From: Lactococcus carnosus
GTDB lineage: Bacteria; Bacillota; Bacilli; Lactobacillales; Streptococcaceae
Length of the DNA: 64,000 nt
Direction: 5' to 3'
Assembly: GCF_006770265.1 (NCBI RefSeq)
Contig: NZ_CP017194.1
Span: forward strand, 1,364,001-1,428,000
This document shows positions 2,150 to 53,016 of this stretch, piece after piece. The notes under the pieces were generated by a model that saw only the letters and a list, made by a program, of their open reading frames with translations, ran no database searches and was not told where the DNA came from. A program made the translations under genes and the position numbers. How positions within the stretch are numbered: position 1 is the first letter of the stretch; every line of letters starts with the position of its first letter.

Positions 2150-2160
2150 AATTTTAAGTC

Positions 2161-2520
2161 TTATTTGCTTAATGCTTTTTTAGAAGCTTCAGCTAATGCT
2201 GCGAAAGCTGCTGCATCAGTAACAGCAAGATCAGCTAAAATCTTACGGTTAACTTCGATCTCAGCTAATTTCAAACCGTGCATCATTTTAGAATATGACA
2301 AACCATTGATACGCGCTGCTGCATTGATACGTGCAATCCATAATTTACGGAAGTCACGTTTCTTTTGACGACGGTCACGGAATGCATAGTTATATGAATT
2401 CATTACTTGTTCTTTGGCAGTACGGAACAAAGTATGTTTTGCTCCATAATAACCTTTCGCAAGTTTCAGTACACGTTTACGACGTTTGCGGCTTACAACG
2501 CCACCTTTAACACGAGCCAT
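2161..2520 (-). CDS. rplT: 50S ribosomal protein L20
   Basis: 119 residues, very basic, with the canonical L20 start [20 protein letters not shown] and the conserved [11 protein letters not shown] segment near residue 60. L20 binds 23S rRNA early in 50S assembly. In Bacillus it also represses its own operon by binding the leader RNA. Last gene of the infC-rpmI-rplT operon. The upstream TATAGTTCTCC on the plus strand corresponds to a GGAG ribosome binding site. Confidence 0.98.
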
Positions 2521-2580
2521 TTATAGTTCTCCTTATTTATATCTTAGTTTAATGTAGTCTATGCTTGATTTAGTGCTCTA

Positions 2581-2781
2581 TTATTTAAGAGAGTAAACCA
2601 TTTTACGGATACGTTTGTAGTCACCAGTTGATACCATACCAGCTTTACGAAGATGACGACGTTGTTTCTTAGTTTTCCCGTGGAAACGGTGGCTTGTATA
2701 GGCTTTAAAACGTTTAAGTCCTCCAGAACCAGTACGTTTAAAACGTTTTGCTGAAGCGCGGTGTGATTTTTGTTTTGGCAT
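2581..2781 (-). CDS. rpmI: 50S ribosomal protein L35
   Basis: 66 residues, start [15 protein letters not shown], the canonical L35 N-terminus, rich in Lys and Arg. A TTG two codons upstream is in frame, but GGAG is spaced 8 nt from the ATG at 2781 and only 2 nt from the TTG, so the ATG is chosen. It lies between infC and rplT, the standard order. Confidence 0.97.
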
Positions 2782-2813
2782 TTTCAAATCTCCTCTAATA
2801 GTTTAGGTAGTAA

Positions 2814-3335
2814 TTATTTTTTCTTTTCGCCTGGTGCCAATTGCATAAACATTTGGCGGCCATCCATCTTAGCACGTTGTTCAACGTGGGCGATGTCCTG
2901 GGTTGCGATAACGAAATCATCCAAGACTTTTTGACCAACTTCTTTATGGGTAATCATCCGACCTTTAAAGCGGATAGATACTTTAACTTTGTTTCCTTTT
3001 TCAAGGAATTTACTTGCTTGACGCAATTTTGTATCAAAGTCATTTTGGTCAATAACTGGAGACAAACGAACTTCTTTGACTGTAACAACAGTCTGATTTT
3101 TCTTTTGTTCTTTCAGTTTTTTCTTTTGCTCAAATTTGAATTTTGTAAAATCCATGATTTTGGCAACAGGCGGTGTTGCTTGTGCTGAAATCAACACCAA
3201 GTCCATATCTAGATCCATGGCTTGACTAAGCGCATCACGTGTCAGTGTAATACCGAGTTGATCGCCATCTGCAGAGATGAGACGGACTTCGTTTGCACGA
3301 ATCGCCTGATTCATTGTTACTCTTTCTCTTGCTAT
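2814..3335 (-). CDS. infC: Translation initiation factor IF-3, probable non-AUG start
   Basis: IF-3 controls start-codon fidelity and keeps the 30S and 50S subunits apart. The body matches IF-3 throughout ([57 protein letters not shown]). The first ATG (3314) has no ribosome binding site and would shorten the N-terminus. Upstream in frame is AUC AUA GCA, with AAGGAG 7 nt before the AUA at 3335 and 4 nt before the AUC at 3338. The added residues ([13 protein letters not shown]) line up with the streptococcal IF-3 N-terminus from family memory. A rare start codon fits the known autocontrol of infC by IF-3. AUA is preferred on spacing; AUC remains possible. Confidence 0.93.
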
Positions 3336-3338
3336 GAT

Positions 3339-3520
3339 TGTTCTCCTTACTGTTCATGTTCTGCTGACTAACTGAGCCAGCTTCTTCATTGAAAAACAAA
3401 ACGGACTTTCCGTAGAAAGCCCGCTATAAATGAACTCTGAAACCAGAGAATAAATTCATTTTGATGCCAAGTAGCTTACGCAATATTGGCGAGAAAGCGG
3501 GGGCTTTCTGCTTTTCAACT
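3339..3520 (-). promoter_or_regulatory. infC-rpmI-rplT leader with terminator/antiterminator (L20-type attenuator)
   Basis: The long untranslated leader contains a minus-strand hairpin CGGGCTTTC-TACG-GAAAGTCCG (3402-3423) followed by TTTTGTTTTT, a typical intrinsic terminator before the infC ribosome binding site. Farther upstream GAAAGCCC (plus 3501-3508) is perfectly complementary to GGGCTTTC, the 5' arm of that terminator, and can form a competing antiterminator. The layout resembles the L20-responsive attenuators of Bacillus infC operons. That L20 is the ligand here is inference. Confidence 0.75.
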
Positions 3521-3525
3521 TCTCT

Positions 3526-3554
3526 AGTATATCAAGGTTTGATGATAATGTCAA
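3526..3554 (-). promoter_or_regulatory. SigA promoter of the infC operon
   Basis: TTGACA (3554-3549), 17-nt spacer, TATACT (3531-3526) on the minus strand, a near-consensus vegetative promoter. The transcript would begin just before the attenuator leader. Confidence 0.85.
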
Positions 3555-3640
3555 CAGAAAACGATGAATAATCTGAATAAATTGCACCAAACTTTGTTAG
3601 TCTTCCTGATCACTACCTTATTTACATCATTTAAAGTGGA

Positions 3641-4021
3641 TTAATCGACAAAGCTAACGGTCTCCTCAACCACTACAGATGCGTCTAGGGTTTGGATGAC
3701 GGGACAGTTGGGTGCGATGAGACGTAGTGCACGACTGGCTTTTTTCTGATCTGCTGCTGCTACTTTCATCTCAAAGTTGATCGTAATCTCACTGACAGGT
3801 TGTGCTTTTTTATCAGCATCTCGTTCATAGCTTACCGTCGCATCTACCAACTCAAAGTCAATCCCTGAATTCTCTAAAATCTTTTTGTAGACATAGATAC
3901 TACATGCTGTGACTGATGCCACCAAAGCTTCTACTGGAGAATAGCCAATCGTTTGCTTTAAGTGCCAGTTACCTGCTGGGTGTACTAATTCAACACCGTT
4001 TTCTCCTAATACCAACTTCAT
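3641..4021 (-). CDS. OsmC family protein
   Basis: 126 residues with the OsmC/Ohr fold pattern: SPVEALVASVTACSIYVYKKI near residues 28-48 carries the first conserved Cys, and NCPVIQTL near 105-112 the second. Members reduce organic or lipid hydroperoxides with two Cys residues. This one belongs to the general OsmC-like (YhfA-type) branch, so the substrate is unknown. GGAG lies 8 nt before the ATG at 4021. Confidence 0.85.
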   Translation of the reverse strand: MKLVLGENGVELVHPAGNWHLKQTIGYSPVEALVASVTACSIYVYKKILENSGIDFELVDATVSYERDADKKAQPVSEITINFEMKVAAADQKKASRALRLIAPNCPVIQTLDASVVVEETVSFVD

Positions 4022-4093
4022 CGATAGGTCTCCATTCTAACTGGCGAGTTACCCAAAAAGCAGCTCGCTATGATTATCATATGCGCTACCTTA

Positions 4094-4123
4094 GTTTTAC
4101 CAAGTAATGGGGCGGCTTGTCAA
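4094..4123 (-). promoter_or_regulatory. Putative promoter of the osmC-like gene
   Basis: Minus strand TTGACA (4123-4118), 18-nt spacer, TAAAAC (4099-4094), between mnmG and the OsmC gene. The -35 is perfect and the -10 matches in four positions. Confidence 0.5.
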
Positions 4124-4148
4124 GAAGAAGGCTTAGAGATATGTGGCC

Positions 4149-6020
4149 TTATCTACCTTCTAAGTAAATCATCAGAATACTGATGTCAGCTGGATTGACC
4201 CCTGAGATACGACTGGCTTGACCAATCGTTTCTGGATTAATCTTCTTAAATTTTTGACGTGCCTCTGTCGCAATACTGTCCAAGGCATCCCAATCGATAT
4301 TTTTAGGAATGCGTTTCGCTTCTAATCGATGCATTTTAGCGACTTGATCCTGTGCTTTTTTGATGTAACCTTCATATTTAATTTCAGTTTCGATCAACTC
4401 GATAATTTTCGAGTCAAGAACTTCTGCTGATTGCCCTATAAAGTCATTAGCGATGGCATAAGTGATTTCTTGACGACGCATAAACTCAGCTGCAGTCAAG
4501 GCATCCGCAAGTGGTTTAAAGCCTAATGCCTCAATCTTAGCATTTGTTTCAGCAATCGGTTTAAGTTTATTTTTCTTAAGGCGGATCATCTCATTTTCAT
4601 ATTGGTATTTTTTGATATCAAATACTTGCCAGCGATGATCATCGACTAGGCCAACTTCGCGGCCAAGCGGTGTTAATCTCATATCAGCATTATCGTGACG
4701 CAAAATCAACCGATATTCTGCACGGCTGGTTAACAACCGGTAAGGTTCAATCGTTCCTTTAGTAACCAAGTCATCAATCATGACACCGATGTAAGCATCT
4801 GAGCGTTTGAGGATAAACTCAGGTTTGTCTTGCGCTTTGAGGGCTGCATTTATTCCTGCAATCAAGCCTTGACCTGCTGCTTCTTCATAGCCGGATGTCC
4901 CATTGGTTTGTCCTGCTGTAAATAAGCCTGAAATCAGTTTTGTTTCAAGGGTCGGACGTAGTTGATGTGGTAGGACAACATCATATTCGATGGCATAGCC
5001 TGGACGCATCATCTCAGCATTTTCCAAACCTGGAATCGATTTTAAAATGTCGAACTGCACATCTTCTGGCATAGAAGTTGATAAGCCTTGCACATAGACT
5101 TCTTCTGTATCCCGACCTTCAGGTTCTAGGAACAATTGGTGACGTGGTTTGTCAGCGAAGCGCACGATTTTATCTTCTATAGAAGGACAATAACGTGGGC
5201 CCACACCTTTTACCATACCTGAGAACATCGGTGCACGGTGGAGATTATCGTGAATGATGGCATGCGTGGCATTCTTAGTATAAGTCAACCAACACGGGAT
5301 TTGATCCGTCAAGTAGTCTGCATCTTTAGATAGAAAGCTAAAATGATTTGGCTTATCATCACCAGGTTGTATCTCAGTCTTACTGTAATCGATGGTACTC
5401 GACTTAACACGTGGTGGTGTACCTGTTTTAAAACGACCAATTTCAAAGCCTAAATCACGGAGATTATCGGCCAGACCAATAGATGCTAGTGAATTATTTG
5501 GCCCTGATGAATACTTCAATTCGCCGATGATAATTTCACCACGAAGGGCTGTTCCTGTGGTAATGACGACTGATTTAGCGGAGTAGATCGTACCTGTCGA
5601 TGTCCTGATGCCTGTGATTTTATTGTCTTCAACCAGAATTTCATCTACAACAGCCTGACGTAAGGTCAGGTTTTCAGTTTCCTCGATCGTTTTCTTCATC
5701 TCACGCGCATATAAATCCTTGTCTGCTTGCGCACGAAGGGCACGAACAGCTGGCCCCTTACCCGTGTTGAGCATTTTCATCTGGATATACGTTTTATCGA
5801 TATTACGACCCATCTCACCACCAAGGGCATCAATTTCTCGAACGACAATCCCCTTAGCAGACCCACCAACTGATGGATTACATGGCATAAAGGCCACCAT
5901 ATTTAAATTAATCGTGACCAGTAACGTCTTACTGCCCATACGTGCAGCAGCAAGCGCTGCTTCACTTCCTGCATGACCTGCACCAACCACGATGACATCA
6001 AAATTTTCTTGAATTTGCAT
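4149..6020 (-). CDS. mnmG: tRNA uridine-5-carboxymethylaminomethyl modification enzyme MnmG (GidA)
   Basis: 623 residues, full length. With MnmE it installs the cmnm5 group on U34 of tRNAs, using FAD and folate. The N-terminal dinucleotide fold reads [21 protein letters not shown] (residues 9-29). The family signatures [11 protein letters not shown] (near 47) and [21 protein letters not shown] (near 363-383) are present. The start [13 protein letters not shown] is standard. Its tRNA-modification partner mnmA lies 2.4 kb upstream on the same strand, but in a separate unit. Confidence 0.97.
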
Positions 6021-15292: not shown

Positions 15293-16348
15293 GGCAAATT
15301 GTAAAATTAGTTTAGCCACCCTGAAGCAAGCAAAAAACATCTGAATCTCTTATACTTGAATTGTAAGATAACAAGTAGGAAGGTATTCAGATGCAAGACC
15401 ATTATAACACACGATGTAAAGAATTAACTTATCCAGAACGACAATGTATTGAACGTTGGCACAACAAAGATAAGCTCAGTAATCGTCAGATTGCACTTCT
15501 CTTAGGTAAAGCCCCTCAAACGATAAATAATGAAGTGCTATTAGGTCTGGTTCAACTTAAAACAAAGACCAAGTATTCATCAAGACGAGCTCAAGAACTG
15601 CACAAAGTCAATAAACAACATTGTGGTAGAAAATCAAAGCTGAGTTCTGACTTGAATCAAAAAATTTCAGAAGGTGTCCGAGATAAACAATCGCTTGAAG
15701 TGATTTTACAAAGTTTTATTGGTCTCGTTTGCCTCAAAACGCTCTACAACTGGCTTGAAAAGGGTTGGCTTGATGTAAAATACCATGAGTTGCTTTATCC
15801 GCACTATAAAAAGGCGAAAAAGCTCCGTAAAACACAACCGAAACGTCCGTTTGGTTTGTCTATTGAGGAACGTCCAGAGGAAATCAATAACCGTTCTGGC
15901 TTCGGTCACTGGGAGATTGATACGGTCATTTTAACAAGGGCGAAGAATGAATGCTTATTGACGTTGACAGAACGTGTGACACGCTTTGAGGTGATACGAT
16001 TAATCCCAGATAAGTCAGCACGATCGGTCAATACAGCGCTTCAATCCCTACAAGAGCAGCTAGTGTTTAAGTCCATCACTTCAGACAATGGGAGAGAGTT
16101 TGCCAAGCTAGGTGAAGCAGTCACTTGTCCTGTATATTATTGCCATGCTTATGCAAGTTTTGAGAGGGGAACAAATGAAAATCACAATCGCATGATTCGC
16201 CGTTTCTTGCCTAAAGGGACAATAAAAACGACTTCGCAGGAAGTCGCTAAAATTGAAACGTGGATGAACAACTATCCAAGAAAAATGTTCAAGTATCGGA
16301 CACCATCTCAGATGTTGCAGGGTGGCTAAATTAAACTTGCAATTTGCC
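15293..16348 (+). mobile_element. IS30-family insertion sequence, copy 1 (1056 bp)
   Basis: The ends are imperfect 31-bp inverted repeats starting GGCAAATTG and finishing TTTAGCCACCCTG, with 4 mismatches. The element holds one transposase gene (15391-16329) and is flanked by 13-bp direct repeats. Its transposase product is identical to that of the element at 45965-47020, and the compared ends are also identical. It lies in the divergent regulatory region between the mannoside PTS operon and its regulator. Confidence 0.95.
15391..16329 (+). CDS. IS30-family transposase (copy 1)
   Basis: 312 residues. An N-terminal helix-turn-helix (YPERQCIERWHNKDKLSNRQ, about 14-33) is followed by a DDE integrase core: HWEIDTV near 172 (first Asp), SITSDNGREF near 228 (second Asp), and FERGTNENHNRMIRRFLP near 253 (Glu). 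The C-terminus YRTPSQMLQGG is typical of IS30. The GGAAGG before the ATG serves as ribosome binding site. The gene is intact, so the element may be active. Confidence 0.96.
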   Translation: MQDHYNTRCKELTYPERQCIERWHNKDKLSNRQIALLLGKAPQTINNEVLLGLVQLKTKTKYSSRRAQELHKVNKQHCGRKSKLSSDLNQKISEGVRDKQSLEVILQSFIGLVCLKTLYNWLEKGWLDVKYHELLYPHYKKAKKLRKTQPKRPFGLSIEERPEEINNRSGFGHWEIDTVILTRAKNECLLTLTERVTRFEVIRLIPDKSARSVNTALQSLQEQLVFKSITSDNGREFAKLGEAVTCPVYYCHAYASFERGTNENHNRMIRRFLPKGTIKTTSQEVAKIETWMNNYPRKMFKYRTPSQMLQGG

Positions 16349-41162: not shown

Positions 41163-42500
41163 TTAATTTTTAAAAGAATGGATTGGTGCAGGAATATGAC
41201 CACCTCGTGCGATAAAGGCTGCTGAGGATTCTTTATGAACAGCCATGACAGGTGCTGTCCCAAGTAAACCACCAAATTCTATTTGGTCACCAACTTTACC
41301 TTTAGGAATGACACGAACAGCAGTTGTCTTCATATTAATTACACCAATTGCTGCTTCATCAGCAATCATGGCTGCAATCGTTGTCGCTGGTGTATCGCCT
41401 GGAACTGCAATCATATCAAGACCAACGCTACAGATTGCTGTCATCGCTTCAAGCTTCTCTAGGTTAAGCACACCAGCATTAACAGCTGCAATCATCCCTT
41501 CATCTTCTGACACAGGGATAAAGGCACCAGATAGACCGCCGACTTGATTACAAGCCATGACGCCACCTTTTTTGACTTGGTCATTTAAAAGAGCAAGTGC
41601 TGCTGTTGTGCCATGCGTGCCGACCATCTCCAGACCCATTTCTTCTAAAATGCGCGCGACAGAATCACCAACTGCAGGAGTTGGTGCAAGCGATAGGTCA
41701 ACAATACCAAACTCGACACCTAAGCGTTCAGAGGCCATTTTACCAACGAGTTGGCCCATGCGAGTGACTTTAAAAGCTGTCTTTTTAACAACTTCAGCAA
41801 CCACATCAAATGACTCCCCACGTACTTTTTCAAGCGCACGTTTGACAACACCTGGTCCAGATACACCAACATTTATCACAACATCTGCTTCACCAACGCC
41901 ATGAAATGCACCGGCCATAAATGGATTATCTTCTACAGCATTTGCAAAGACGACAAGTTTAGCACAGCTCATATCATCGAGCTTAGCTGCAGCCACGATA
42001 ATTTCACCCATATCACGGACTGCATCCATGTTAATCCCTGTTTTAGTCGAGCCAACATTAACAGAACTACAAACAAAATCAGTCGCGGCTAACGCTTTTG
42101 GCAAAGAATTAATCAGAATCTTATCACCCTTTTGGTAGCCTTTTTGCGCTAGTGCTGTAAAACCACCGATAAAATCAATCCCAATTGCTTTGGCAGCACG
42201 ATCGAGTGCCAAGGCAAAAGGTGTATAATCAGTTGCATCTGTTGCCGCACCAATAATCGCGATAGGGGTGACACTGACACGCTTGTTAATAATCGGAATA
42301 CCAAGTTCATCACCAATCGTATTGCCGACTTTCACTAAGTCTTTGGCTTTCGTCGTGATTTTTTGGTAAATTTTCTCACAGGCACGATCGATATCACTAT
42401 CGATACAATCAAGTAGAGAAATTCCCATCGTAATCGTCCGAATGTCTAAGTTTTCCTCTTCAATCATGCGAATTGTTTCAAGAATTTGAGTTTGTTTCAT
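41163..42500 (-). CDS. UPF0210/DUF711 family protein
   Basis: 445 residues, full length. [32 protein letters not shown] and the Gly/Ala-rich body ([36 protein letters not shown]) are typical of the DUF711 family, structurally related to pyruvate formate-lyase-like folds but without known activity. A partner ACT-domain gene lies upstream, the usual pairing. Confidence 0.93.
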
Positions 42501-42640
42501 GTGGATACCTTTCTGAACTAGCTAGTCATTAAAACAGATTTACAGCGTGTCAGCAAAAAAATAATACCAGACCAACTATCTGGCAATTATCATTAGCCGT
42601 CAAACACGATAAACATGCCCCATCAATAATCAATACCAGC

Positions 42641-42907
42641 TTAAAGCTGATGCATGGCCTCAAAAATAGCTTCATTCATGATCTTGATATCAACTTTTAA
42701 GGTCGCACCAAATGCTTCTAGATTTGCTTTAATATCCGAAAATGAGCCAGTTGCTTCAATTTCAACAACCATATTCATGGTAAAAAAACCATCCATAATC
42801 GTTTGTGAGATATCAATAATATTCACATCAAGTTCTGCTAGACGTGTTGAAACGCCAGCTACAATACCTGTTCTATCTTGTCCAATAACCGTTACAATTG
42901 CGCGCAT
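42641..42907 (-). CDS. ACT-domain protein (UPF0237 family)
   Basis: 88 residues, a single ACT domain: MRAIVTVIGQDRTGIVAGVSTRLAELDVNIIDISQTI. Probably a small-molecule-binding regulator. It is conserved next to DUF711 genes; function not established. Confidence 0.92.
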   Translation of the reverse strand: MRAIVTVIGQDRTGIVAGVSTRLAELDVNIIDISQTIMDGFFTMNMVVEIEATGSFSDIKANLEAFGATLKVDIKIMNEAIFEAMHQL

Positions 42908-43003
42908 CTGATCTCCTCATTTTTGTTATAATAGTTAATATGTATTATATCACAAAAACTGGCATAATTTTTAGAAAATTTCGTCATTTAGCAAAGGAAC
43001 CCT

Positions 43004-43945
43004 ATGTCTCTTAACACATTTCTTAATTTCACGCGCATTCAGACCCTACCTGCTGCTTTACTGTCCCCTATAGCAGGTCTAATTTTCTCACTCTACTATT
43101 TTAAAAGCTTCCACCTAGCCCCAACACTTCTCTTTTTCATCGGCCTTATCGCCATCAACCTCTTTGTCAGTGCTTGGAATAATCTGATGGATTATCAAAA
43201 AGCACTTGATCCAGAGTATAAGACGCATGAAAATATCTTATCAACACGTCAAATCCCACCTATCCTGGCACTAAAAATTTGTTTATCACTACTTGCCATT
43301 GATGTGATTGTGGGTGTAGGTGTTGTCCTAACGACAAACATTGCCATTCTTCCTATCGGTGCCATTTGCTTTTTAATCGCCATTTTTTATACCTTTGGCC
43401 CCTTTGCCTTTTCTCGTTTTCCACTCGGTGAAATACTAGCTGGATTTGCTGAAGGGATTTGCGGCTTCTTCTTTGGTATTTATATTAATGCCTTCGACAA
43501 AGGATTTTTCTTAGCCTTCTTTGATAAGTGGCGCCTCACTTTCACGATCGATTTTGCAATCTTTGTCCCGATTGTTCTCGTCGGTATCATGTGTTTTTGT
43601 ATGAATTTCAATGTCATGTTAGCTGATAATATCTGTGATCTAACCCAAGATGAAAAAAATGGTCGTTTGACCTTGCCACACTATATAGGCATTCCTAAAG
43701 CTTTGAAATTATATGTTGCCATGTATAGTTTAGCTAGTCTCACGATTTTGCTTGCAATTATCGTCGGCATTCTACCCAAAACGGTTTTATTGATGTTAGT
43801 CATTGCCCCACTAATCATCAAAAATATCAGGACATTTTTACGCAAACAAGACAAAAGAGAAACCTTTATTTTATCTGTTAATAATTTAATGCTCTATAAT
43901 GACGCCTTAGCAATTACCATGGTAATCGGCTTAATTTTAAGATAA
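43004..43945 (+). CDS. menA: 1,4-dihydroxy-2-naphthoate polyprenyltransferase (UbiA family)
   Basis: 313 residues, eight to nine membrane helices. The two Asp-rich motifs of UbiA enzymes are NNLMDYQKALD (near 60) and NVMLADNICDLTQDEKNGRLTLP (near 205-227). Attaches the isoprenoid tail in menaquinone synthesis, consistent with a quinone-using respiratory capacity. Divergent from the ACT-domain gene. AAAGGA precedes the ATG. Confidence 0.88.
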   Translation: MSLNTFLNFTRIQTLPAALLSPIAGLIFSLYYFKSFHLAPTLLFFIGLIAINLFVSAWNNLMDYQKALDPEYKTHENILSTRQIPPILALKICLSLLAIDVIVGVGVVLTTNIAILPIGAICFLIAIFYTFGPFAFSRFPLGEILAGFAEGICGFFFGIYINAFDKGFFLAFFDKWRLTFTIDFAIFVPIVLVGIMCFCMNFNVMLADNICDLTQDEKNGRLTLPHYIGIPKALKLYVAMYSLASLTILLAIIVGILPKTVLLMLVIAPLIIKNIRTFLRKQDKRETFILSVNNLMLYNDALAITMVIGLILR

Positions 43946-43966
43946 CTGTCTTTAGGCAGTTTTTTT
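43944..43966 (+). terminator. Terminator after menA
   Basis: AACTG-TCTTTAGG-CAGTT followed by TTTTTT, overlapping the menA stop codon. Confidence 0.75.
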
Positions 43967-44094
43967 AATGCTGATTTGACAGGTCATCGTGACACATATC
44001 TTCTACAAAGTGGTAGAATGAGTGTGAAATCAACCTAAGTTAATTTTGTATAGCAACTTGATTAACTAATTTATATACGAAAGCAGGCTTATTT

Positions 44095-45078
44095 ATGTGC
44101 ACATCATTGACCTATCAAACAGAAGCAAACGACCTTTTTCTTGCTAGGACCATGGATTTTTCTCAGGTTTTAGATGGGCGTCCCGTATTTTTACCACGAC
44201 AATTTAATTTCCAAACGAATTTTAGTGGCAAGCAAACAACCAAATATGCCATCATGGGAGCAGGTGCAAGTTATGAAGATGAGATCGTGATTGCTGATGG
44301 CTTTAACGAACATGGTTTGGCCATGGCCGAACTATATTTTGCAAATGAGATCGTCTTAGAAAAACTCCCACTCGCAGATAAGCTTAATCTGGCACCACAT
44401 GAATTGATTACCTATCTGCTGGGTAATTTTGCAACGCTATCTGAAATAGCAAAAAAGATAGCTGACATCGCCCTGGTCATCCCTGATAATGGTGCACCAA
44501 CACTACCCTTACACTACATCTTAACAGATAAGACTGGGCAAGCAGCGGTCATCGAAGCACGAGGTGGTGACTTAACGCTCATCGATAACCCCGTTGGTGT
44601 GATGACAAATACACCAAACTTAGACTGGCATATCAAAAATTTAAATAATTATTTACACATCCAACCACAAGCATTTCCAGATAAACAGTTCAATCATGTG
44701 ACAGCATCACAATTCAGTCAAGGCACTGGCACTCAAGGGCTACCCGGATCTTACACACCACCAGATCGCTTTGTCCGTGCAGCGTTTGGCCGTCAATACT
44801 TACCTGCGGCTACTACGATTGATCAAGCAGTTACAAATATCTTACATATCCTAGGCATGGTATCAGTACCAAAAGGCTTAAATATCCCATCTACTGGTGT
44901 ATCAGATTATACCCAGTACACTGGCATCATGAGTACAACCGAAAAAGCCTACTATATGACCACTTATGATAATCCGACTGTCTATCGTATGGCCATGACC
45001 GATGATATGATCCACAACAGACACGAAGTCAAATGGTTTGATTTGCCGTTTGACCCACAGATTGTTGACCTTGATTAA
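44095..45078 (+). CDS. Choloylglycine hydrolase / penicillin V acylase family (linear amide C-N hydrolase)
   Basis: 327 residues. Met-Cys start: Cys2 becomes the Ntn nucleophile after Met removal (MCTSLTYQ). Active-site residues fit LARTMDFS (Arg18-type, near 18-25), VGVMTNTPNLDWH (Asn, near 170-180) and a late Arg (SPPDRFVRAAF-like PPDRFVR, near 222). Cytosolic. The substrate may be conjugated bile acid, penicillin V or an acyl-homoserine-lactone-like amide and cannot be read here. Confidence 0.9.
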   Translation: MCTSLTYQTEANDLFLARTMDFSQVLDGRPVFLPRQFNFQTNFSGKQTTKYAIMGAGASYEDEIVIADGFNEHGLAMAELYFANEIVLEKLPLADKLNLAPHELITYLLGNFATLSEIAKKIADIALVIPDNGAPTLPLHYILTDKTGQAAVIEARGGDLTLIDNPVGVMTNTPNLDWHIKNLNNYLHIQPQAFPDKQFNHVTASQFSQGTGTQGLPGSYTPPDRFVRAAFGRQYLPAATTIDQAVTNILHILGMVSVPKGLNIPSTGVSDYTQYTGIMSTTEKAYYMTTYDNPTVYRMAMTDDMIHNRHEVKWFDLPFDPQIVDLD

Positions 45079-45119
45079 CGAGACTGTTTCATGTGTTGAC
45101 TAGTTCATTTCATGACAAA

Positions 45120-45150
45120 CCCCCACGATATTGATGTCGTGGGGGTTTTT
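45120..45150 (+). terminator. Terminator after the choloylglycine hydrolase-family gene
   Basis: CCCCCACG-ATATTGATGT-CGTGGGGG followed by TTTTT, a strong GC-rich stem 42 nt past the stop. Confidence 0.93.
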
Positions 45151-45251
45151 GGGTATATAAGAGCTGATTGACTGTGCTAACTATAGCTCAACACCGATTA
45201 AAATGAAAAACTTTAAATTATTGTTATCAAAAAAAGTTAAGCAAAATGTGC

Positions 45252-45905
45252 TTATATTTCAAGTCTCACATCAAAATCCGGGACTATATTAGATGATTTA
45301 ATAATTTGTAAATGTTCACTATACATTTTTTTTGACTTCGCTATTATATCATTATACTTTAACACTTCAATATTCAATGCTTTAAACTGAGCCAATTCAT
45401 ATGTTTCAAATTCAATTTTATTCCCTGATCCAATTATCCCTGCATCTTCAGTTATAATAAAAACAGCCTTTATTTCAATATCACTTATTAATTTTAAATC
45501 TGTTCTTTTTTGTTGTATTGCCTTTCTATATTTTTTTATTTGTTCTGTCATTATCCCAGCATTAACGACTGCATGTCCTGTAGGTGTATTTTTCTTTAAT
45601 TCGACAATTACTGGATATTGCTCCTCGGCAACTTCTATTAATATATCTAGAAATGCTCTTTCAAATTCACCTGCAATTTTTGTATTTTGATACACTTGAG
45701 TAGTTAATTTATCCTCACTATCAGAATTTTTATTGATATTCCAATACGGATTTATTAGCCAAGGATGTTCAGCTAAATGCTCTTCAAATATTTTTTCTAA
45801 TGTTGAAGAATTTCTCATTATTTTTTCTAAATGTTCTATTGCTTTTATTCTGGATTTAATCATTTCAACATGAGCCAAATCTTCTTTTGTAGCAATATTT
45901 TCCAT
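45252..45905 (-). CDS. 3' fragment of an IS-split restriction gene: Shedu/DUF4263-like PD-(D/E)XK nuclease domain
   Basis: 217 residues from the ATG at 45905, which happens to have GGAG 6 nt upstream; a TTG at 45920 and ATG at 45917 are also in frame. LEKIFEEHLAEHPWLINPYW resembles the entry to Shedu/DUF4263 domains, and FERAFLDILIEVAEEQYPVIVELKK gives the D...ExK core. The frame stays open upstream to the IS end (residues INIESDQTYS) and joins the ATPase ORF across the IS without a stop. It may still be translated alone, but without its ATPase part. Confidence 0.8.
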   Translation of the reverse strand: MENIATKEDLAHVEMIKSRIKAIEHLEKIMRNSSTLEKIFEEHLAEHPWLINPYWNINKNSDSEDKLTTQVYQNTKIAGEFERAFLDILIEVAEEQYPVIVELKKNTPTGHAVVNAGIMTEQIKKYRKAIQQKRTDLKLISDIEIKAVFIITEDAGIIGSGNKIEFETYELAQFKALNIEVLKYNDIIAKSKKMYSEHLQIIKSSNIVPDFDVRLEI

Positions 45906-45950
45906 CAGTTTCTCCATCAAACTATATGTTTGATCAGATTCTATATTTAT

Positions 45951-45964
45951 ATTTATTATTTTTA
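45951..45964. repeat. Target-site duplication, left copy, IS30 copy 2
   Basis: ATTTATTATTTTTA, repeated exactly at 47021-47034 on the other side of the element (14 bp). Confidence 0.88.
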
Positions 45965-47020
45965 GGCAAATTGCAAGTTTAATTTAGCCACCCTGCAACA
46001 TCTGAGATGGTGTCCGATACTTGAACATTTTTCTTGGATAGTTGTTCATCCACGTTTCAATTTTAGCGACTTCCTGCGAAGTCGTTTTTATTGTCCCTTT
46101 AGGCAAGAAACGGCGAATCATGCGATTGTGATTTTCATTTGTTCCCCTCTCAAAACTTGCATAAGCATGGCAATAATATACAGGACAAGTGACTGCTTCA
46201 CCTAGCTTGGCAAACTCTCTCCCATTGTCTGAAGTGATGGACTTAAACACTAGCTGCTCTTGTAGGGATTGAAGCGCTGTATTGACCGATCGTGCTGACT
46301 TATCTGGGATTAATCGTATCACCTCAAAGCGTGTCACACGTTCTGTCAACGTCAATAAGCATTCATTCTTCGCCCTTGTTAAAATGACCGTATCAATCTC
46401 CCAGTGACCGAAGCCAGAACGGTTATTGATTTCCTCTGGACGTTCCTCAATAGACAAACCAAACGGACGTTTCGGTTGTGTTTTACGGAGCTTTTTCGCC
46501 TTTTTATAGTGCGGATAAAGCAACTCATGGTATTTTACATCAAGCCAACCCTTTTCAAGCCAGTTGTAGAGCGTTTTGAGGCAAACGAGACCAATAAAAC
46601 TTTGTAAAATCACTTCAAGCGATTGTTTATCTCGGACACCTTCTGAAATTTTTTGATTCAAGTCAGAACTCAGCTTTGATTTTCTACCACAATGTTGTTT
46701 ATTGACTTTGTGCAGTTCTTGAGCTCGTCTTGATGAATACTTGGTCTTTGTTTTAAGTTGAACCAGACCTAATAGCACTTCATTATTTATCGTTTGAGGG
46801 GCTTTACCTAAGAGAAGTGCAATCTGACGATTACTGAGCTTATCTTTGTTGTGCCAACGTTCAATACATTGTCGTTCTGGATAAGTTAATTCTTTACATC
46901 GTGTGTTATAATGGTCTTGCATCTGAATACCTTCCTACTTGTTATCTTACAATTCAAGTATAAGAGATTCAGATGTTTTTTGCTTGCTTCAGGGTGGCTA
47001 AACTAATTTTACAATTTGCC
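45965..47020 (-). mobile_element. IS30-family insertion sequence, copy 2 (1056 bp), splitting a restriction gene
   Basis: Same length, same imperfect 31-bp inverted ends (GGCAAATTG ... TTTAGCCACCCTG) and an identical transposase product to the element at 15293-16348, in the opposite orientation. It is flanked by perfect 14-bp direct repeats. The insertion ends the ATPase reading frame four codons inside the IS (G K L stop). Confidence 0.96.
45984..46922 (-). CDS. IS30-family transposase (copy 2)
   Basis: 312 residues, identical at protein level to the transposase of copy 1: HTH at about 14-33, then DDE core residues in HWEIDTV, SITSDNGREF and FERGTNENHN. Intact. It is transcribed in the same direction as the disrupted restriction gene. 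Confidence 0.96.
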   Translation of the reverse strand: MQDHYNTRCKELTYPERQCIERWHNKDKLSNRQIALLLGKAPQTINNEVLLGLVQLKTKTKYSSRRAQELHKVNKQHCGRKSKLSSDLNQKISEGVRDKQSLEVILQSFIGLVCLKTLYNWLEKGWLDVKYHELLYPHYKKAKKLRKTQPKRPFGLSIEERPEEINNRSGFGHWEIDTVILTRAKNECLLTLTERVTRFEVIRLIPDKSARSVNTALQSLQEQLVFKSITSDNGREFAKLGEAVTCPVYYCHAYASFERGTNENHNRMIRRFLPKGTIKTTSQEVAKIETWMNNYPRKMFKYRTPSQMLQGG

Positions 47021-48358
47021 ATTTATTATTTTTATTAATTCATCCGTTTCGATATTATTAATTACTGAAGCAATTGCCGTAATCATTGAATTAACTTCTT
47101 CGTAGTAGCTATCATCATGTTCTACAGGTTCATCAATTTTTGCAGAAAATAAAGTTAATAATTTTCCATTTAATTTTTTTTGATCAGGTGTTAAGGTATT
47201 TAACCAACTTTGATAACTTTGATTTTTTTGGATTTTTTCTGGAAGTTTTTCTACTGCTACACTTGTTCTAAAAACATCCCATTTTCCAATAAAATATTTT
47301 CTAATATTCTCAATTGTATTAATAAAATCTTTTACTTCAGAGACAGAATCATCTAACCCTTGTCGACTAGAAGTAATTGGATCCTCTAAATCAATGAAAT
47401 AATTTGCCTGAATTTCTCCTACCATATAGCTTTTTGCTATCCTAGCTTCTGTTTTTCCTTTAAGAATATCTTCATCAGCAATTTTTCCATTAGAGTAAAC
47501 AATAATATTATCTGTATTCTCTTTTAATTCTTTAGGTTTACTGACAGATCCTACCCAGCCTTTAATCCCATTATCCTCAATAAAACATAAGATATTTGAA
47601 TCACCTTGAAATTTTTCTTTTTTTATAACATTATCTTTAAAAATATTATTAATTTCATCATTTGAATATCCAAAGTAAATTACATATTCTAAATTTTGAT
47701 AATAAAAATTTGTTTCTAAAGAAACTATCTTATCATCATAAACTATTGAAAAATCATCTTGAGTTAAATAGAATCGTCTTGATAACTGTAAAATTACTGA
47801 ATCTCGTGTTCTTTTTGTTAGTTTTTTTCTTAATTTTTTACAATGTATAATGAATCCTGATTCAAAAATTTGAAATTCAGATAATTCATCAGGTAATTTC
47901 TCTAACAAACTTACAGTTGTTGTATGCTTGGAACCACTCTCTATCATGTCTTCATATTTTAACTCAAAAGAAAGCCATTGCTTAGAATCTAAAGTTTTTG
48001 AGTACACTACGTATTCTTCACCCAAACTGAAAGCGGATAACTTACCAATCCCCTTTTGCCCCATTGGTTCTCTTTTATCCATACCTTTAAATGGAATCTC
48101 ATCTTGTTTTTTTGTTCCAATAGTTACATATTTAGATTCAAATTCTTCAAAATTGAGTCCTTTTCCATTATCGGCTATAACTAAAGAATTATCATTCTCT
48201 TTAATAGAAATAATAACATTTGTTGCATAAGCATCATAGGAGTTGGCAACTAATTCAGCTAATGCTGGGGGTGCGGAAGAATACAAATTTCTCCCTAAAT
48301 GAGTAACTGCATTATTAGCAACTGAAAATGTTAGTTCTTTTTGATCATAATTTTGCAT
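47009..48358 (-). CDS. 5' fragment of an IS-split restriction gene: GHKL (HSP90/MutL/MORC-type) ATPase
   Basis: 449 residues, of which the last three (GKL) and the stop come from the IS. Bergerat ATP-binding fold: motif N PPALAELVANSYDA with E35, N39 and D42; DNGKG at 63-67; GQKGIGK at 100-106. A SSRQGLDDS motif near 330 fits the S5/transducer region of MORC-like proteins. The ATG overlaps the methyltransferase stop by 14 nt, so both were one operon. Base composition is visibly AT-richer than the flanks, which suggests acquisition. In prokaryotes such ATPases accompany methylases and nucleases in restriction systems. Confidence 0.88.
   Translation of the reverse strand: MQNYDQKELTFSVANNAVTHLGRNLYSSAPPALAELVANSYDAYATNVIISIKENDNSLVIADNGKGLNFEEFESKYVTIGTKKQDEIPFKGMDKREPMGQKGIGKLSAFSLGEEYVVYSKTLDSKQWLSFELKYEDMIESGSKHTTTVSLLEKLPDELSEFQIFESGFIIHCKKLRKKLTKRTRDSVILQLSRRFYLTQDDFSIVYDDKIVSLETNFYYQNLEYVIYFGYSNDEINNIFKDNVIKKEKFQGDSNILCFIEDNGIKGWVGSVSKPKELKENTDNIIVYSNGKIADEDILKGKTEARIAKSYMVGEIQANYFIDLEDPITSSRQGLDDSVSEVKDFINTIENIRKYFIGKWDVFRTSVAVEKLPEKIQKNQSYQSWLNTLTPDQKKLNGKLLTLFSAKIDEPVEHDDSYYEEVNSMITAIASVINNIETDELIKIINGKL
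47021..47034. repeat. Target-site duplication, right copy, IS30 copy 2
   Basis: Exact repeat of 45951-45964. This copy is still coding inside the ATPase fragment (residues of LIKIIN). Confidence 0.88.
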
Positions 48359-49397
48359 ACTTTTCCTTTAAGTGTCCTACAATGCTCCTCCCAATAATTT
48401 CACCAAGTTTAGGAGGAACTGCATTACCAATTTGCATTGCAATTTTGCTCATTGCATACTTGTTCTCATCTTCAATGAATTGATAGTTCTTTGGAAAGCT
48501 TTGTAGTATAGCCCCTTCACGTAAGCTTAAAGCTCTATCCTGTTCAGGATGTCCAAATCTACCATTACCATAGCCTGGAAATTGCGTTGTAACAGTTGAG
48601 GAAGGCTTATCCCATTCTAGTCTCCCATAAACTGAACCAAAACTTTGCCCACTTTTTTTCTTGTAACAATTTGGAAGAAGTTTTTCATCCCAATCTCTCC
48701 AAGTTCCACCAGCCTTGGAACTCTTTATGCGCTCCATGTTAAGAACAGATAATTTTCTTGACCTATGTAAGGGGTCCTCAGGATCAGTTTCACCTGCTTT
48801 TAATTTTGGTAATTTTGAAATTGCTTTGCGTACTGTTGGATATTTTTCTTTTGATAACTCCTCTGGAAAATCTATAACTCCAAATTTAGATGCTAGCAAT
48901 AATAAACGTTTCCTATTCTGTGGAATGCCATATGCCGGAGCAAATGCAATCTTCCAAGATACCTTATATCCCTCTTTATCAAGCAACAATAAAAAACGTT
49001 GAAAAATATCTTCCTTAGCTAACTGTGGTACATTTTCCATTGAAACTATATCTGGTTTAACTAACTGAACTTGTTTGCCAAAATAGTCCAATAAATCCAT
49101 TTTTTCTTTTCTGGACTCACTATCTTTATACCTATGACTATATGCAGAGAATGGTTGACAAGGTGCACAGCCAATTAAAATTTTAATATCTGTATTATTT
49201 GGATAATAAGAAAGTAATTCGTCATCTCTCAGTTCTTTTATATTTTTATGGACGAATTTAGCTTTATTATTTTTTTCATAAGCAAACTGACATGATTCTT
49301 CAAAATCAAATCCTGCAACAACATTTATTCCAGTTTTCTGGATACCGTAGGTTAAACCTCCAACACCACAAAATAAATCAATAGCATTAACTTCCAT
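48345..49397 (-). CDS. DNA (cytosine-5-)-methyltransferase
   Basis: 350 residues from the ATG at 49397 (MEVNAIDLFCGVGGLTYG), with GAGG 6 nt upstream; an upstream in-frame ATG at 49439 lies before the -10 element and cannot be used from it. m5C motifs in order: I DLFCGVGG, IV GCAPCQPFSAYS with the catalytic Cys (near 77), VI SMENVPQL, VIII PQNRKRLLLLAS, then the target-recognition domain (about 185-270), IX RALSLREGAILQSFP and X QIGNAVPPKLGEIIG. Recognition sequence unknown. First gene of the island and intact, so probably still methylating. Confidence 0.95.
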   Translation of the reverse strand: MEVNAIDLFCGVGGLTYGIQKTGINVVAGFDFEESCQFAYEKNNKAKFVHKNIKELRDDELLSYYPNNTDIKILIGCAPCQPFSAYSHRYKDSESRKEKMDLLDYFGKQVQLVKPDIVSMENVPQLAKEDIFQRFLLLLDKEGYKVSWKIAFAPAYGIPQNRKRLLLLASKFGVIDFPEELSKEKYPTVRKAISKLPKLKAGETDPEDPLHRSRKLSVLNMERIKSSKAGGTWRDWDEKLLPNCYKKKSGQSFGSVYGRLEWDKPSSTVTTQFPGYGNGRFGHPEQDRALSLREGAILQSFPKNYQFIEDENKYAMSKIAMQIGNAVPPKLGEIIGRSIVGHLKEKYAKL

Positions 49398-49416
49398 TAC
49401 ATACCTCTTTTCATTT

Positions 49417-49422
49417 ATTATA
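49417..49422 (-). promoter_or_regulatory. Extended -10 of the restriction-modification operon
   Basis: Minus strand TGGTATAAT (TGn-extended -10) 19 nt before the methyltransferase ATG, giving a leader of about 13 nt that just includes the AGAGG ribosome binding site. The -35 is weak. Confidence 0.6.
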
Positions 49423-49483
49423 CCAAATTTATTATTCATTATACATGGTTGAATATATTTTTAAAATTTAAGTACTAAACATC

Positions 49484-49515
49484 AAAAAAAGTTCACCTAA
49501 TGCTAGATGAACTTT
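49484..49515 (-). terminator. Terminator after the FAD-dependent dehydrogenase gene
   Basis: Minus strand AAAGTTCA-loop-TGAACTTT followed by TTTTT, 5 nt past the stop. Confidence 0.88.
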
Positions 49516-49519
49516 CCTA

Positions 49520-51121
49520 TCACCCTTCGGCAGGAGCAAACTGACTGATTAAGGCTTCGGCACATTTGAGGCCATCGATGGCTGCTGAGACGATGCCACC
49601 TGCGAATCCTGCACCTTCGCCACTTGGGTAGATGCCTGTTGTGGACTCTGACTGGAAGTTTGCTTCATCCCGATTAATTCTAAGGGGTGAAGATGAGCGT
49701 GATTCCACGCCAGTCATGACGGCATCAGACATGGCAAAGCCATGCATTTTTTTATCCAGGCCTATCAGTGCGTCTTTAAGCGCATCTGAGATATAGTCTG
49801 GAAATAGGGCTGTCAGATCAGTTGGCACGACCCCTAAAGAATAGCTAGGTGTAACACTGCCCATTGCCGTTGACGGTTGTCCCTTTAGAAAATCGCCGAC
49901 TAACTGTGCTGGCGCCTGATAAGTACGCCCACCAAGTTCAAAGGCTTTCTTTTCAAGCGCTCTTTGGAAGTCGATACCTGCCAATGGATGCTCACTCCCA
50001 AAGTCTTCAGGAAAGACTTGTACCAAAAGGCCACTGTTAGCGTTATGTTGGTCTCTGGCATGCTCACTCATGCCGTTTGTGACGAGATGACCAACTTCTG
50101 AAGCAGAGGCAACGACAAGCCCTCCTGGGCACATACAAAATGTATACACACCTCGACCGTTTTTAGCTTTATGGGTCAAGCGATACTCTGCTGCACCTAA
50201 TCTTGGATGACCTGAAAATTCCTTATACTGCGCCTTATCGATGACTGTCTGAGGATGTTCCACTCGGACACCTACAGCGAATGGTTTTGCTGTCATCTTG
50301 ACCCCATCACGATAGAGCTCACCAAAGGTATCTCTCGCACTATGACCAATCGCTAAAATGGCCTGTTGTGCCTGAATAAACTCACCAGAAGTCAATGTCA
50401 GCCCTTCCAGTTTGTTATCATCAATTTCAACATGGTTGACTTGGGTATTAAATCTGACCTCACCACCCAGTGAGATAATTTCTTTTCGGATATTTTTAAC
50501 GATATCACGCAGTAAGTCTGTCCCAACATGGGGGTGCGCTTTATAAAGGATTTCCTCAGGTGCGCCTGCATTAACAAACTCTGACAGGACTTTTCTCCCT
50601 CGTAAATCCTTAACACGGCTGGTCAATTTACCATCTGAAAAGGTCCCTGCACCGCCTTCTCCAAACTGGACGTTTGAGTGAGGATTTAATTTGCCTGCTT
50701 CCCAGAAGTCATCGATTGACTTCACACGTTCATCGACAGCTTCACCACGCTCTAGAACAAGTGGTCTGTAGCCCATCTGAGCGAGCAGGAGTGCAGCGTA
50801 CATGCCTGCTGGACCAAAACCAATCACAACAGGTCTATGCGCTAGTTTCGTCGTGCCCATCTGAGGATTTTTATAGGTTAGATCTGGTGTCATGGCTACA
50901 TTTTTAAATTTATCCGTTAAAAAACGACTTTCATCTGCCACACGAATATCTACCGTGTAGATAAAGTTAATTTCACCACGTTTTCTGGCATCAATAGATT
51001 CTTTGTAAATCCTGAAAGAAAGGATATCAACAGGCTTAATTTTGAGTTTTTTAGCAACTTGCGCTTTAACAGCGGCTATGTCATCCTGGATAGATAATTT
51101 GATTTGTGTAATTCTAAGCAT
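49520..51121 (-). CDS. NAD(P)/FAD-dependent oxidoreductase (COG2509-type)
   Basis: 533 residues. An N-terminal extension (about 1-95), then the dinucleotide fold PVVIGFGPAGMYAALLLAQMGYRPLVLERG (about 97-126) and NVQFGEGGAGTFSDGKLTSR (about 150-170), the hallmark of this uncharacterised FAD-dependent dehydrogenase family. C-terminal GIYPSGEGAGFAGGIVSAAIDG closes the FAD site. Physiological role unknown. Confidence 0.9.
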   Translation of the reverse strand: MLRITQIKLSIQDDIAAVKAQVAKKLKIKPVDILSFRIYKESIDARKRGEINFIYTVDIRVADESRFLTDKFKNVAMTPDLTYKNPQMGTTKLAHRPVVIGFGPAGMYAALLLAQMGYRPLVLERGEAVDERVKSIDDFWEAGKLNPHSNVQFGEGGAGTFSDGKLTSRVKDLRGRKVLSEFVNAGAPEEILYKAHPHVGTDLLRDIVKNIRKEIISLGGEVRFNTQVNHVEIDDNKLEGLTLTSGEFIQAQQAILAIGHSARDTFGELYRDGVKMTAKPFAVGVRVEHPQTVIDKAQYKEFSGHPRLGAAEYRLTHKAKNGRGVYTFCMCPGGLVVASASEVGHLVTNGMSEHARDQHNANSGLLVQVFPEDFGSEHPLAGIDFQRALEKKAFELGGRTYQAPAQLVGDFLKGQPSTAMGSVTPSYSLGVVPTDLTALFPDYISDALKDALIGLDKKMHGFAMSDAVMTGVESRSSSPLRINRDEANFQSESTTGIYPSGEGAGFAGGIVSAAIDGLKCAEALISQFAPAEG

Positions 51122-51358
51122 GGGTCTCTTTTCGTTGACTTTGTAATGGATAGGTCATCACGACTGGACTGTGGTGACTGGATTAACATACATGAGGCAT
51201 TATCTGTATGCGTTTTATTTACGTCAATTTTGGGGTTAAGGCCACTTGACTGATTTTTAGCACCATGAGGTGCGCTACCATTTTATTATACTAAAAATAT
51301 CAACATTAGGCGAGATGTTCTAAAGCCTTAGCCCAGTCTGCTTAATTGAAGAAGGCAC

Positions 51359-51382
51359 AAAAAAACGCGTCATCGCGTTTTT
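51359..51382 (-). terminator. Terminator of the fab/acc operon
   Basis: Minus strand AAAAACGCG-ATGA-CGCGTTTTT with T run, overlapping the accA stop codon. Confidence 0.9.
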
Positions 51383-52145
51383 AATATTTTCTAAACCGTT
51401 GGTAACGTGCTTCGACTAGATCTTCTGTCGTCATACTTGTTAGCGCGTCAAGTTCAGTAATCAGGGCAGCTTTTAGTAAGGCAATCGTATCTTCCTCTGG
51501 AATAATCTTATCGATGACACCATTTGCTAGTAAGTCTTTTGATGTTATCTTCAATAACTCAGCTGCTTCAGGTGCGCGTGAGGAATCCTTCCAAAGAATC
51601 GTTGCGAAGCCTTCTGGTGATAAGATGCTGTACATGGTATTTTCTAGCATCCAAACACGGTCAGCTACTGCCAAGGCAAGTGCACCACCAGACCCACCCT
51701 CACCATTTATAATGGCGATAACGGGTACTTTTAAGTCACTCATCTCGAACAGATTTCTTGCGATTGCTTCACCCTGACCACGCTCTTCAGCGCCAGAACC
51801 TGGAAAGGCACCAGCTGTATTGATAAAGGTGATAACGGGTCTACCAAATTTTTCAGCTTGCTTCATTAAGCGTAGTGCCTTACGGTAGCCTTCAGGATGA
51901 GGTTGACCAAAATTACGATCCAGATTATCTTGTAGACTTTTGCCTTTTTGAATCCCAACAATCGTCACAGGACGACCAGCAAGACTAGCAATCCCACCGA
52001 TGATGGCGCCGTCATCTCTGAAGTTACGATCCCCATGAAATTCGATAAAGTCATCAAAGACTTTTTTAGCATAGTCACGTGTTGTCAACCGGTCTTGACT
52101 TCTTGCGAGTTGCACAATTCTATTTGCACTATCAGGCATTTTCAT
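51381..52145 (-). CDS. accA: Acetyl-CoA carboxylase carboxyltransferase subunit alpha
   Basis: 254 residues, the short Gram-positive cocci form. [29 protein letters not shown] and [19 protein letters not shown] are the carboxyltransferase/crotonase motifs. Transfers carboxyl from biotin to acetyl-CoA together with AccD. The start overlaps the accD stop by 14 nt. Last gene of the operon. Confidence 0.97.
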
Positions 52146-53016
52146 GTCCCCCTTTGTTATCTTGACTATGGAGTTTCAAAATCTGACCAATAACAGCTGG
52201 CAAATCCATACGCTTGATGATTTTATCGATAAACCCATGCGCCTTCAAAAATTCTGCTTTTTGGAAGTCTTCAGGTAAATCTTCCCGTACTGTTTGCTCA
52301 ATCACCCGGCGCCCAGCAAACCCAATCATGGTTTGTGGTTCAGCTAGTATAATATCTCCTAGCATGGCAAATGATGCTGTAACACCACCAGTCGTTGGGT
52401 CAGTCAAGATGGTCAGGTACAACAAGCCAGTATTGCTATGGCGTTTTACTGCGGCTGATATCTTAGCCATCTGCATCAAACTCATAATGCCTTCTTGCAT
52501 CCTGGCACCACCTGATGCCGTGAAGATGACTACTGGAAGTTTTTCGTCAGTCGCATACTCAAACAATCTCGTGATTTTTTCACCAACAACTGTTCCCATA
52601 GATGCCATGATAAAGCTAGAATCCATGATGGCAAGTGCTGTTTTTTGACCTTTAATCGTCGCAACGCCTGTTAAAACAGCCTCATCAAGCCCTGTTTTAG
52701 CCTTGGTAGCAGCTAATTTGTCAAGATAACCCGGAAAGTTTAATGGATCTTCTGAGTCAATCCCAGTGAAAAATTCTGTAAACGTATCAGCATCTGCAAC
52801 AAGGCTAAGCCGATCCATAGCTGAAATTCTGAAATTATAGGCACAGAAAGGACAAACTTTTTCTACACCCAAATCCTTGCTATAAATCGTATGCTTACAA
52901 CTGGGACATTTGGCAAAAAGCTCATCTGGTACTTCTGGTAGCGTACTTTTATCACCACTTCTCGATCGATTTGGATTGATGCGAATATATTTACTTTTTT
53001 TATTAAATAAAGCCAT
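52132..53016 (-). CDS. accD: Acetyl-CoA carboxylase carboxyltransferase subunit beta
   Basis: 294 residues. N-terminal zinc ribbon with CPSCKHTIY and CPFCAYNF (two CxxC pairs, about 37-59), then the crotonase-like domain with [20 protein letters not shown] near 165. Pairs with AccA. Confidence 0.97.

What the first reader, a model, noticed from the sequence alone, without database searches (positions are those of the whole stretch)
45252..48358. IS30 insertion has split a GHKL-ATPase/PD-(D/E)XK nuclease gene; frames rejoin in silico
Seen: the ATPase ORF ends four codons inside the IS (GGC AAA TTG TAA). The nuclease ORF is open back to the other IS end. Removing 45965-47020 and one 14-bp repeat gives ...LIKIIN-INIESDQTYS-LMEKLMEN... 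without a stop, about 678 residues. Known: GHKL/MORC-type ATPases occur in prokaryotic restriction-modification systems, and Shedu/DUF4263 nucleases are defence proteins. Inference: the intact gene encoded an ATP-dependent restriction or anti-phage effector with an ATPase-nuclease layout that I cannot name as a described system.
Basis: partly seen in the sequence, partly recalled or inferred. Interest (0 to 1): 0.85.

Follow-up and report, generated by a model that had tools for sequence, protein, structure and literature searches.

The report
Restriction gene broken by jumping DNA
A bacterium's DNA-cutting defence enzyme of a known type (an ATP-using engine joined to a DNA scissor, next to its protective DNA-methylating partner) has been split in two by a recent jumping element, leaving the protective partner intact.

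Summary
A 1056-bp IS30-family element (45965-47020), flanked by an exact 14-bp direct repeat, interrupts one gene. Searched apart, the two halves hit the same models and the same intact single-gene proteins, in the right order. The closest seen is Lactococcus hircilactis DSM 28960 (669 aa; 67.5% and 69.6% identity). Directly upstream lies an intact C5-cytosine methylase. The locus is a restriction-modification operon whose restriction gene is broken and whose methylase survives.

GHKL ATPase + C-terminal E-D-ExK nuclease beside a methylase is paraMORC3 (Iyer 2008). NCBIfam has BbrUII/HgiDII restriction enzymes, PADLOC REase_II, and Vibrio VcSduA is a phage-tested protein of the same layout. 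The nearest intact relative scores below the BbrUII/HgiDII cut-off (357 vs 550 bits), so this is a divergent branch; its recognition site is unknown.

A more interesting side result: in Lactobacillales, close relatives of this methylase sit beside four different effectors (GHKL-nuclease, GHKL-TIR-like, GHKL-Ymh, GmrSD_N + HEPN). In two pairs with 95-96% identical methylases the effector has been exchanged in place, DNA homology ending 9-15 bp before the methylase's end.

The parts
48345..49439 (-). C5-cytosine DNA methylase (364 aa), intact; first gene of the operon, overlaps the start of the restriction gene by 14 nt
   Evidence: Pfam DNA_methylase 192.5 bits, cut-off 22; only PF00145 match at E <= 0.001 in the whole genome; 80% identical to the methylase of the L. 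hircilactis operon
47009..48358 (-). N-terminal half of the restriction gene: GHKL ATPase; its last 12 nt (GGC AAA TTG TAA) lie inside the IS
   Evidence: HATPase_c_3 72 bits, cut-off 25; NF050001 model 2-398, 254 bits; PADLOC REase_II; GHKL motifs ELVANSYDA, DNGKGL, MGQKGIGK present
45965..47020 (-). IS30-family element, 1056 bp, one of 7 identical genomic copies
45984..46922 (-). IS30 transposase, same direction as the broken gene
   Evidence: NF033563 230 bits, cut-off 80
46990..47020 (.). terminal inverted repeat, right end (31 bp)
45965..45995 (.). terminal inverted repeat, left end (31 bp)
47021..47034 (.). 14-bp target duplication, copy in the ATPase half
45951..45964 (.). 14-bp target duplication, copy in the nuclease half
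45252..45964 (-). C-terminal half: PD-(D/E)XK nuclease domain (ORF listed from 45920; frame open back to the IS)
   Evidence: NF050001 model 445-646, 85 bits; E42, E107-L108-K109, Q127, Y131 invariant and D92 at least 90% conserved in 46 rows; model mean pLDDT 80; Shedu nucleases first in fold searches

Best explanation
This is a horizontally acquired restriction-modification operon of the paraMORC3 kind whose restriction gene was recently knocked out by an IS30 element. Shown: an intact C5 methylase; one ATPase-nuclease gene interrupted at the joint between its two domains; both halves keep their catalytic motifs; intact one-gene relatives exist. Inferred: when intact, the methylase marked the host's own sites; the restriction protein, a GHKL dimer, used ATP to close on DNA and let its C-terminal nuclease cut DNA lacking the mark. 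Inferred for today: restriction is lost or much weakened, and the methylase lives on as an orphan, harmless because loss of the cutter, unlike loss of the methylase, does not expose host DNA.
For: Both halves hit the same families in order and the same intact proteins. Of 80 kept relatives, 79 are one full-length ORF, 56 have a methylase-model match directly upstream on the same strand and 66 one adjacent on either strand (methylase matches counted at E <= 1e-5, a few of them weak). Catalytic residues are kept. The intact relative's model resembles MORC2/MORC3 and TRAP1 ATPase modules and the window nuclease's model Shedu nucleases. Seven identical IS copies, six with exact target duplications, point to recent activity. 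Genes at 27-34% G+C against 39.5% for the window, and a congeneric genome with matching flanks (97.4% and 92.6% identical) only 108 bp apart, point to acquisition. VcSduA, same layout, needs both its ATPase and its nuclease residue for anti-phage activity (PMC12137116, passages).
Against: No activity or methylation data. The closest intact relative scores 357 bits against a 550-bit cut-off for the BbrUII/HgiDII equivalog, so its cleavage behaviour may differ. GTCGAC, the HgiDII site, is not avoided in 464 kb of this genome (observed/expected 0.95). 14 of 80 relatives have no methylase found within 600 bp (some of the 14 start at a contig edge). The nuclease half has a possible own start and a weak promoter-like site inside the IS.
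Confidence: 0.86

Rival explanations
1. The split enzyme still works as two polypeptides. The break falls in the linker between the ATPase module and the nuclease, both pieces can fold, and the nuclease half could be transcribed from the IS and translated from its own start behind it.
For: In the intact relative the break maps to residues 438-448, at the junction of two long helices (H410-439, H443-482). The nuclease half has GGAG six nt before an ATG (about 45905) (sequence printed). The transposase runs in the same direction, and the scan lists a minus-strand promoter-like site inside the IS (46153-46125, 9 of 12) about 220 nt before that ATG.
Against: That promoter-like site is weak and the scan is not specific (29 sites found, 19.7 expected from shuffles). 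The GGAG is absent at the same place in L. hircilactis. Kept relatives are fused in 79 of 80 (biased to full length).
Confidence: 0.12
2. The intact protein is a Shedu-like (VcSduA-type) stand-alone nuclease that senses some feature of phage DNA other than missing methylation, and the methylase next door is only a neighbour.
Confidence: 0.15
3. Two always separate genes with an IS between them by coincidence.
For: Only that the present frames are separate.
Against: The duplicated target is read in the same register on both sides; intact one-gene relatives.
Confidence: 0.01

Closest known systems
Intact operon of Lactococcus hircilactis DSM 28960 (L007/L047)
   Same: Methylase (80%), ATPase (67.5%) and nuclease (69.6%) in the same order with a 14-nt overlap of the two genes
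   Different: Gene uninterrupted (669 aa); in the stretches compared only the operon matched, not the flanks
paraMORC3 (Iyer, Abhiman, Aravind 2008, PMC2292703; parts 1-2 of 4 read)
   Same: GHKL + S5-like module, C-terminal RE-fold nuclease with E-D-ExK, in methylase operons
   Different: None seen in architecture; the paper predicts function from neighbourhoods
BbrUII/HgiDII family restriction enzyme (NCBIfam NF050001)
   Same: The two halves align to it in order over most of its length; C5 methylase partner
   Different: Nearest intact relative 357 bits, below the 550 cut-off; recognition site not known to be GTCGAC
VcSduA, a GHKL-bearing Shedu (PMC12137116, passages)
   Same: N-terminal GHKL ATPase, C-terminal PD-(D/E)XK nuclease; its authors say proteins of this organisation were annotated as paraMORC3
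   Different: SduA_C (DUF4263) is not matched by the window nuclease; no methylase is mentioned in the passages seen
Campylobacter coli pSH89 operon (WP_002875392, WP_002875393)
   Same: Methylase then 676-aa ATPase-nuclease gene; 43.5% and 47.3% identity
   Different: On a conjugative plasmid, intact

Membership tests
paraMORC3 | N-terminal GHKL domain with intact ATP-binding motifs | tested here: met
   HATPase_c_3 72 bits; motifs in alignment
paraMORC3 | S5-fold domain after the GHKL domain | tested here: inconclusive
   Model of the intact relative aligns over about 400 columns to MORC2/MORC3 and TRAP1 ATPase modules; the S5 part was not examined alone
paraMORC3 | C-terminal RE-fold nuclease with E-D-ExK | tested here: met
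   E42, E107, K109 invariant, D92 at least 90% in 46 rows; fold matches to PD-(D/E)XK nucleases
paraMORC3 | Found in restriction-modification operons | tested here: met
   C5 methylase overlapping upstream; 56 of 80 relatives likewise have one directly upstream
BbrUII/HgiDII restriction enzyme (NF050001) | Curated cut-off of 550 bits | tested here: not met
   Closest intact relative 357 bits; the pieces alone 254 and 85
BbrUII/HgiDII restriction enzyme (NF050001) | Recognises GTCGAC with a 5mC methylase partner | tested here: inconclusive
   Partner is a C5 methylase; its specificity region is well conserved among relatives, but GTCGAC is not avoided (O/E 0.95) and no methylome is held
Shedu (SduA) | SduA_C / DUF4263 domain | tested here: not met
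   No SduA_C match for the window piece at E up to 1; weak in 28 of 46 relatives. The search of the own genome with PF14082 also found none, but its controls did not ring, so it shows nothing
Shedu (SduA) | Shedu nuclease fold | tested here: inconclusive
Type II restriction-modification | Site-specific cleavage blocked by the partner methylase | not testable with these tools
   needs an enzyme assay
IS30 insertion sequence | IS30 transposase and terminal inverted repeats | tested here: met
   NF033563 over cut-off; inverted ends

The most novel reading that the evidence does not exclude
The methylase is the fixed part of a modular immune device. One cytosine methylase lineage guards interchangeable effectors (DNA nuclease, TIR-like, HEPN RNase-like) that are swapped in place beside it, so absence of one methylation mark would trigger either DNA cutting or cell suicide. 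If the GHKL module (or the GmrSD_N module) reads the unmarked site, sensing and killing are separable in these systems.
Probability: 0.4. Interest if true: 0.65.

Novelty: new member of a known kind. Interest (0 to 1): 0.4.

Why it matters
The broken gene itself is an ordinary event: a restriction gene lost to an IS with the methylase kept. It matters as a pointer to a widespread, little-tested class of ATP-using restriction enzymes (one capped scan for its ATPase motifs gave 505 relatives, of which the best 80 were looked at) and to the in-place exchange of effectors beside a near-identical methylase, which would make it testable whether non-cutting effectors (TIR, HEPN) are triggered by missing methylation.

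Tried and rejected
Two separate genes: rejected. GTCGAC avoidance as a sign of specificity: no signal. Solved-structure sequence search with the nuclease half: no match at E up to 1; with the ATPase half 17 sequences, PMS2, MutL/Mlh1 and Hsp90-type ATPases. Viral contigs searched with the transposase: no relative. Plasmids searched with the IS: 31 records, only short end pieces of 80-90% identity. Phage records searched with the intact relative: 2 records, one full-length paraMORC3 and one short match. SduA_C in the own genome: nothing, but the controls did not ring either. Rfam on 42500-52500: nothing. A paper on 13-14 bp IS30 target duplications: a listing only, none opened. IS loss of restriction genes with orphan methylases: a listing of 4, none opened. 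Literature on effector exchange: searches, listings and abstract starts only; this does not show absence from print. Other papers: PMC8011034 passages, PMC4618763 one passage, of no use. The O'Connell Motherway 2009 and Gu 2025 papers are not held; what I say of HgiDII and BbrUII comes from passages of PMC5867850 and the NCBIfam name. On rechecking I corrected one point: the promoter scan does list a weak site inside the IS in front of the nuclease half, so the two-polypeptide rival went from 0.10 to 0.12 and the main reading from 0.87 to 0.86.

Full report
OBSERVATION. The element at 45965-47020 is an IS30-family insertion with 31-bp inverted ends (27 of 31 alike) and an exact 14-bp direct repeat on each side. 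The genome (one contig, 2,156,377 bp) holds 7 copies 100% identical over 1056 bp plus 7 diverged or partial matches; 6 of the 7 identical copies have exact 13-14 bp flanking repeats, the seventh a 13-bp one with a mismatch. The duplication is therefore a property of this element, longer than the 2-3 bp that I recall for IS30 relatives. Another of the seven lies in the window at 15293-16348.

ONE GENE. Searched apart, they hit NCBIfam NF050001 at model positions 2-398 and 445-646 of 659, PADLOC REase_II PDLC03419 at 4-437 and 468-666 of 695, and the same PHROG, 6203. Both align to the same intact proteins in the same order: L. hircilactis (residues 3-437 and 449-665 of 669; 67.5% and 69.6%), C. 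coli pSH89 (676 aa; 43.5% and 47.3%) and four proteins of 663-664 aa from the same bacterial family. In 245 genomes of the family, 47 have some match to the ATPase half at E <= 0.001, but only the own genome and five others match at E below 1e-60. Of these 80, 79 are one full-length ORF, 56 have a C5-methylase match directly upstream on the same strand and 66 one adjacent on either strand. The kept set was ranked against a full-length query, so the first figure is biased upward; methylase matches were counted at E <= 1e-5 and a few are weak.

THE OPERON. The methylase (48345-49439) is intact, is the only PF00145 match in the genome, and overlaps the restriction gene by 14 nt. The R-M genes are 27-34% G+C against 39.5% for the window and 42-46% for the neighbours. 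In a congeneric genome (G005) the two matching flanks (97.4% and 92.6% identical) are 108 bp apart; in another (G006, flanks 95.6% and 95.8%) the same site holds a different methylase plus a gene with a partial PADLOC REase_II match (53 bits). The site looks like a hotspot for restriction systems. GTCGAC, the HgiDII site (PMC5867850, passages), is not avoided in 464 kb of the genome (O/E 0.95), so specificity stays open.

MECHANISM. Shown: architecture, order, motifs, interruption, intact methylase. From the literature: VcSduA, the same layout, loses anti-phage activity when its ATPase or nuclease residue is changed, and its authors read their growth data as direct restriction of the phage (PMC12137116, passages). 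Inferred: the ATPase closes on DNA and licenses the nuclease at unmethylated DNA; the IS has abolished this, and the methylase persists safely as an orphan. A two-polypeptide remnant is not excluded: the nuclease half has a possible start and a weak promoter-like site inside the IS.

EFFECTOR EXCHANGE. Searching the window's methylase in 245 genomes of its family and 395 of its order (some genomes in both draws) gave 20 loci at E <= 1e-80, the window's included. The downstream genes are GHKL-nuclease in 7 (the window's split one included), GHKL with an SpbK/TIR-like C-terminus in 6, GHKL-Ymh in 1, and GmrSD_N plus MAE_28990-type HEPN genes in 6. The TIR label rests on the PADLOC spbK model for two of the six (that SpbK is a TIR protein is recalled) and on BLAST to those two for the other four; Pfam gave no TIR match in the four of six scanned. 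On the methylase tree (22 rows, 5 open forks, long branches at the two plasmid rows) the labels need 8 changes where 3 is the least possible; shuffled labels need 11.0 on average, as few as 8 in 5 of 200, so the effectors are clustered but exchanged several times. Two pairs are clear: methylases 96.3% identical with TIR-like (G208) against nuclease (G139), and 95.1% identical with TIR-like (G091) against GmrSD_N + HEPN (G170). In the first pair DNA homology runs 5.8 kb at 87% through the methylase, stops 9-12 bp before its end, and resumes at 78% beyond the effector; in the second it runs at 93%, stops 12-15 bp before the methylase end and resumes over 191 bp at 88% beyond the effector. Two of the 20 loci have an effector broken by IS30 elements with the methylase intact: the window's, and G088, where two IS30 transposase genes lie inside the GmrSD_N gene. 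Parts of this pattern are in print: Iyer 2008 describes paraMORC families taking each other's place and TIR fusions, and PMC3710099 (passages) Ymh fused to paraMORCs and MAE_28990 near methylases. In-place exchange next to a near-identical methylase was not seen in the listings of searches.

VERDICT. A real, recent IS knock-out of a restriction gene of a described kind. The gene is ordinary; the exchangeable effectors beside its methylase are the part worth following.

Noticed in passing
L029 (G208) vs L027 (G139); L170 (G091) vs L171 (G170): In-place exchange of the effector beside a 95-96% identical methylase: TIR-like for nuclease, TIR-like for GmrSD_N + HEPN; homology stops 9-15 bp before the end of the methylase gene and resumes beyond the effector.
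   Followed up: partly
window 45079-49519: Likely restriction hotspot: the matching flanks are 108 bp apart in G005, and in G006 the site holds another methylase and a partial REase_II match.
   Followed up: yes
L167 (G088), about 1100-5260: Second case of IS30 elements (two transposase genes) splitting the effector gene next to an intact relative of the same methylase.
   Followed up: partly
G000, 7 identical IS copies; one at window 15293-16348: IS30-family element with 13-14 bp AT-rich target duplications, longer than I recall for IS30.
   Followed up: partly
L046, Escherichia phage PhiR44_1: A phage with P2-type gene names (GpN-GpQ, GpA) carries a paraMORC3 gene convergent with a Dcm gene, between structural and replication genes.
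   Followed up: no
L006, Burkholderia glumae plasmid p48s3p: Another apparently broken copy: ATPase ORF of 437 aa, nuclease remnant in another frame, transposases downstream, methylase intact.
   Followed up: no
464 kb of G000 (20 stretches plus the window): GATC is strongly under-represented (observed/expected 0.58), which hints at past GATC restriction.
   Followed up: no
G000:C1:339241-339618 (L003): A second, distant GHKL relative in the same genome (32% over residues 11-141, open frame 379 aa).
   Followed up: no
L195 (G004:C23), 319-2876: In a congeneric genome a methylase and a GHKL-Ymh gene lie next to the relative of the window gene 43004-43945, near the same neighbourhood as the window's operon.
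   Followed up: no
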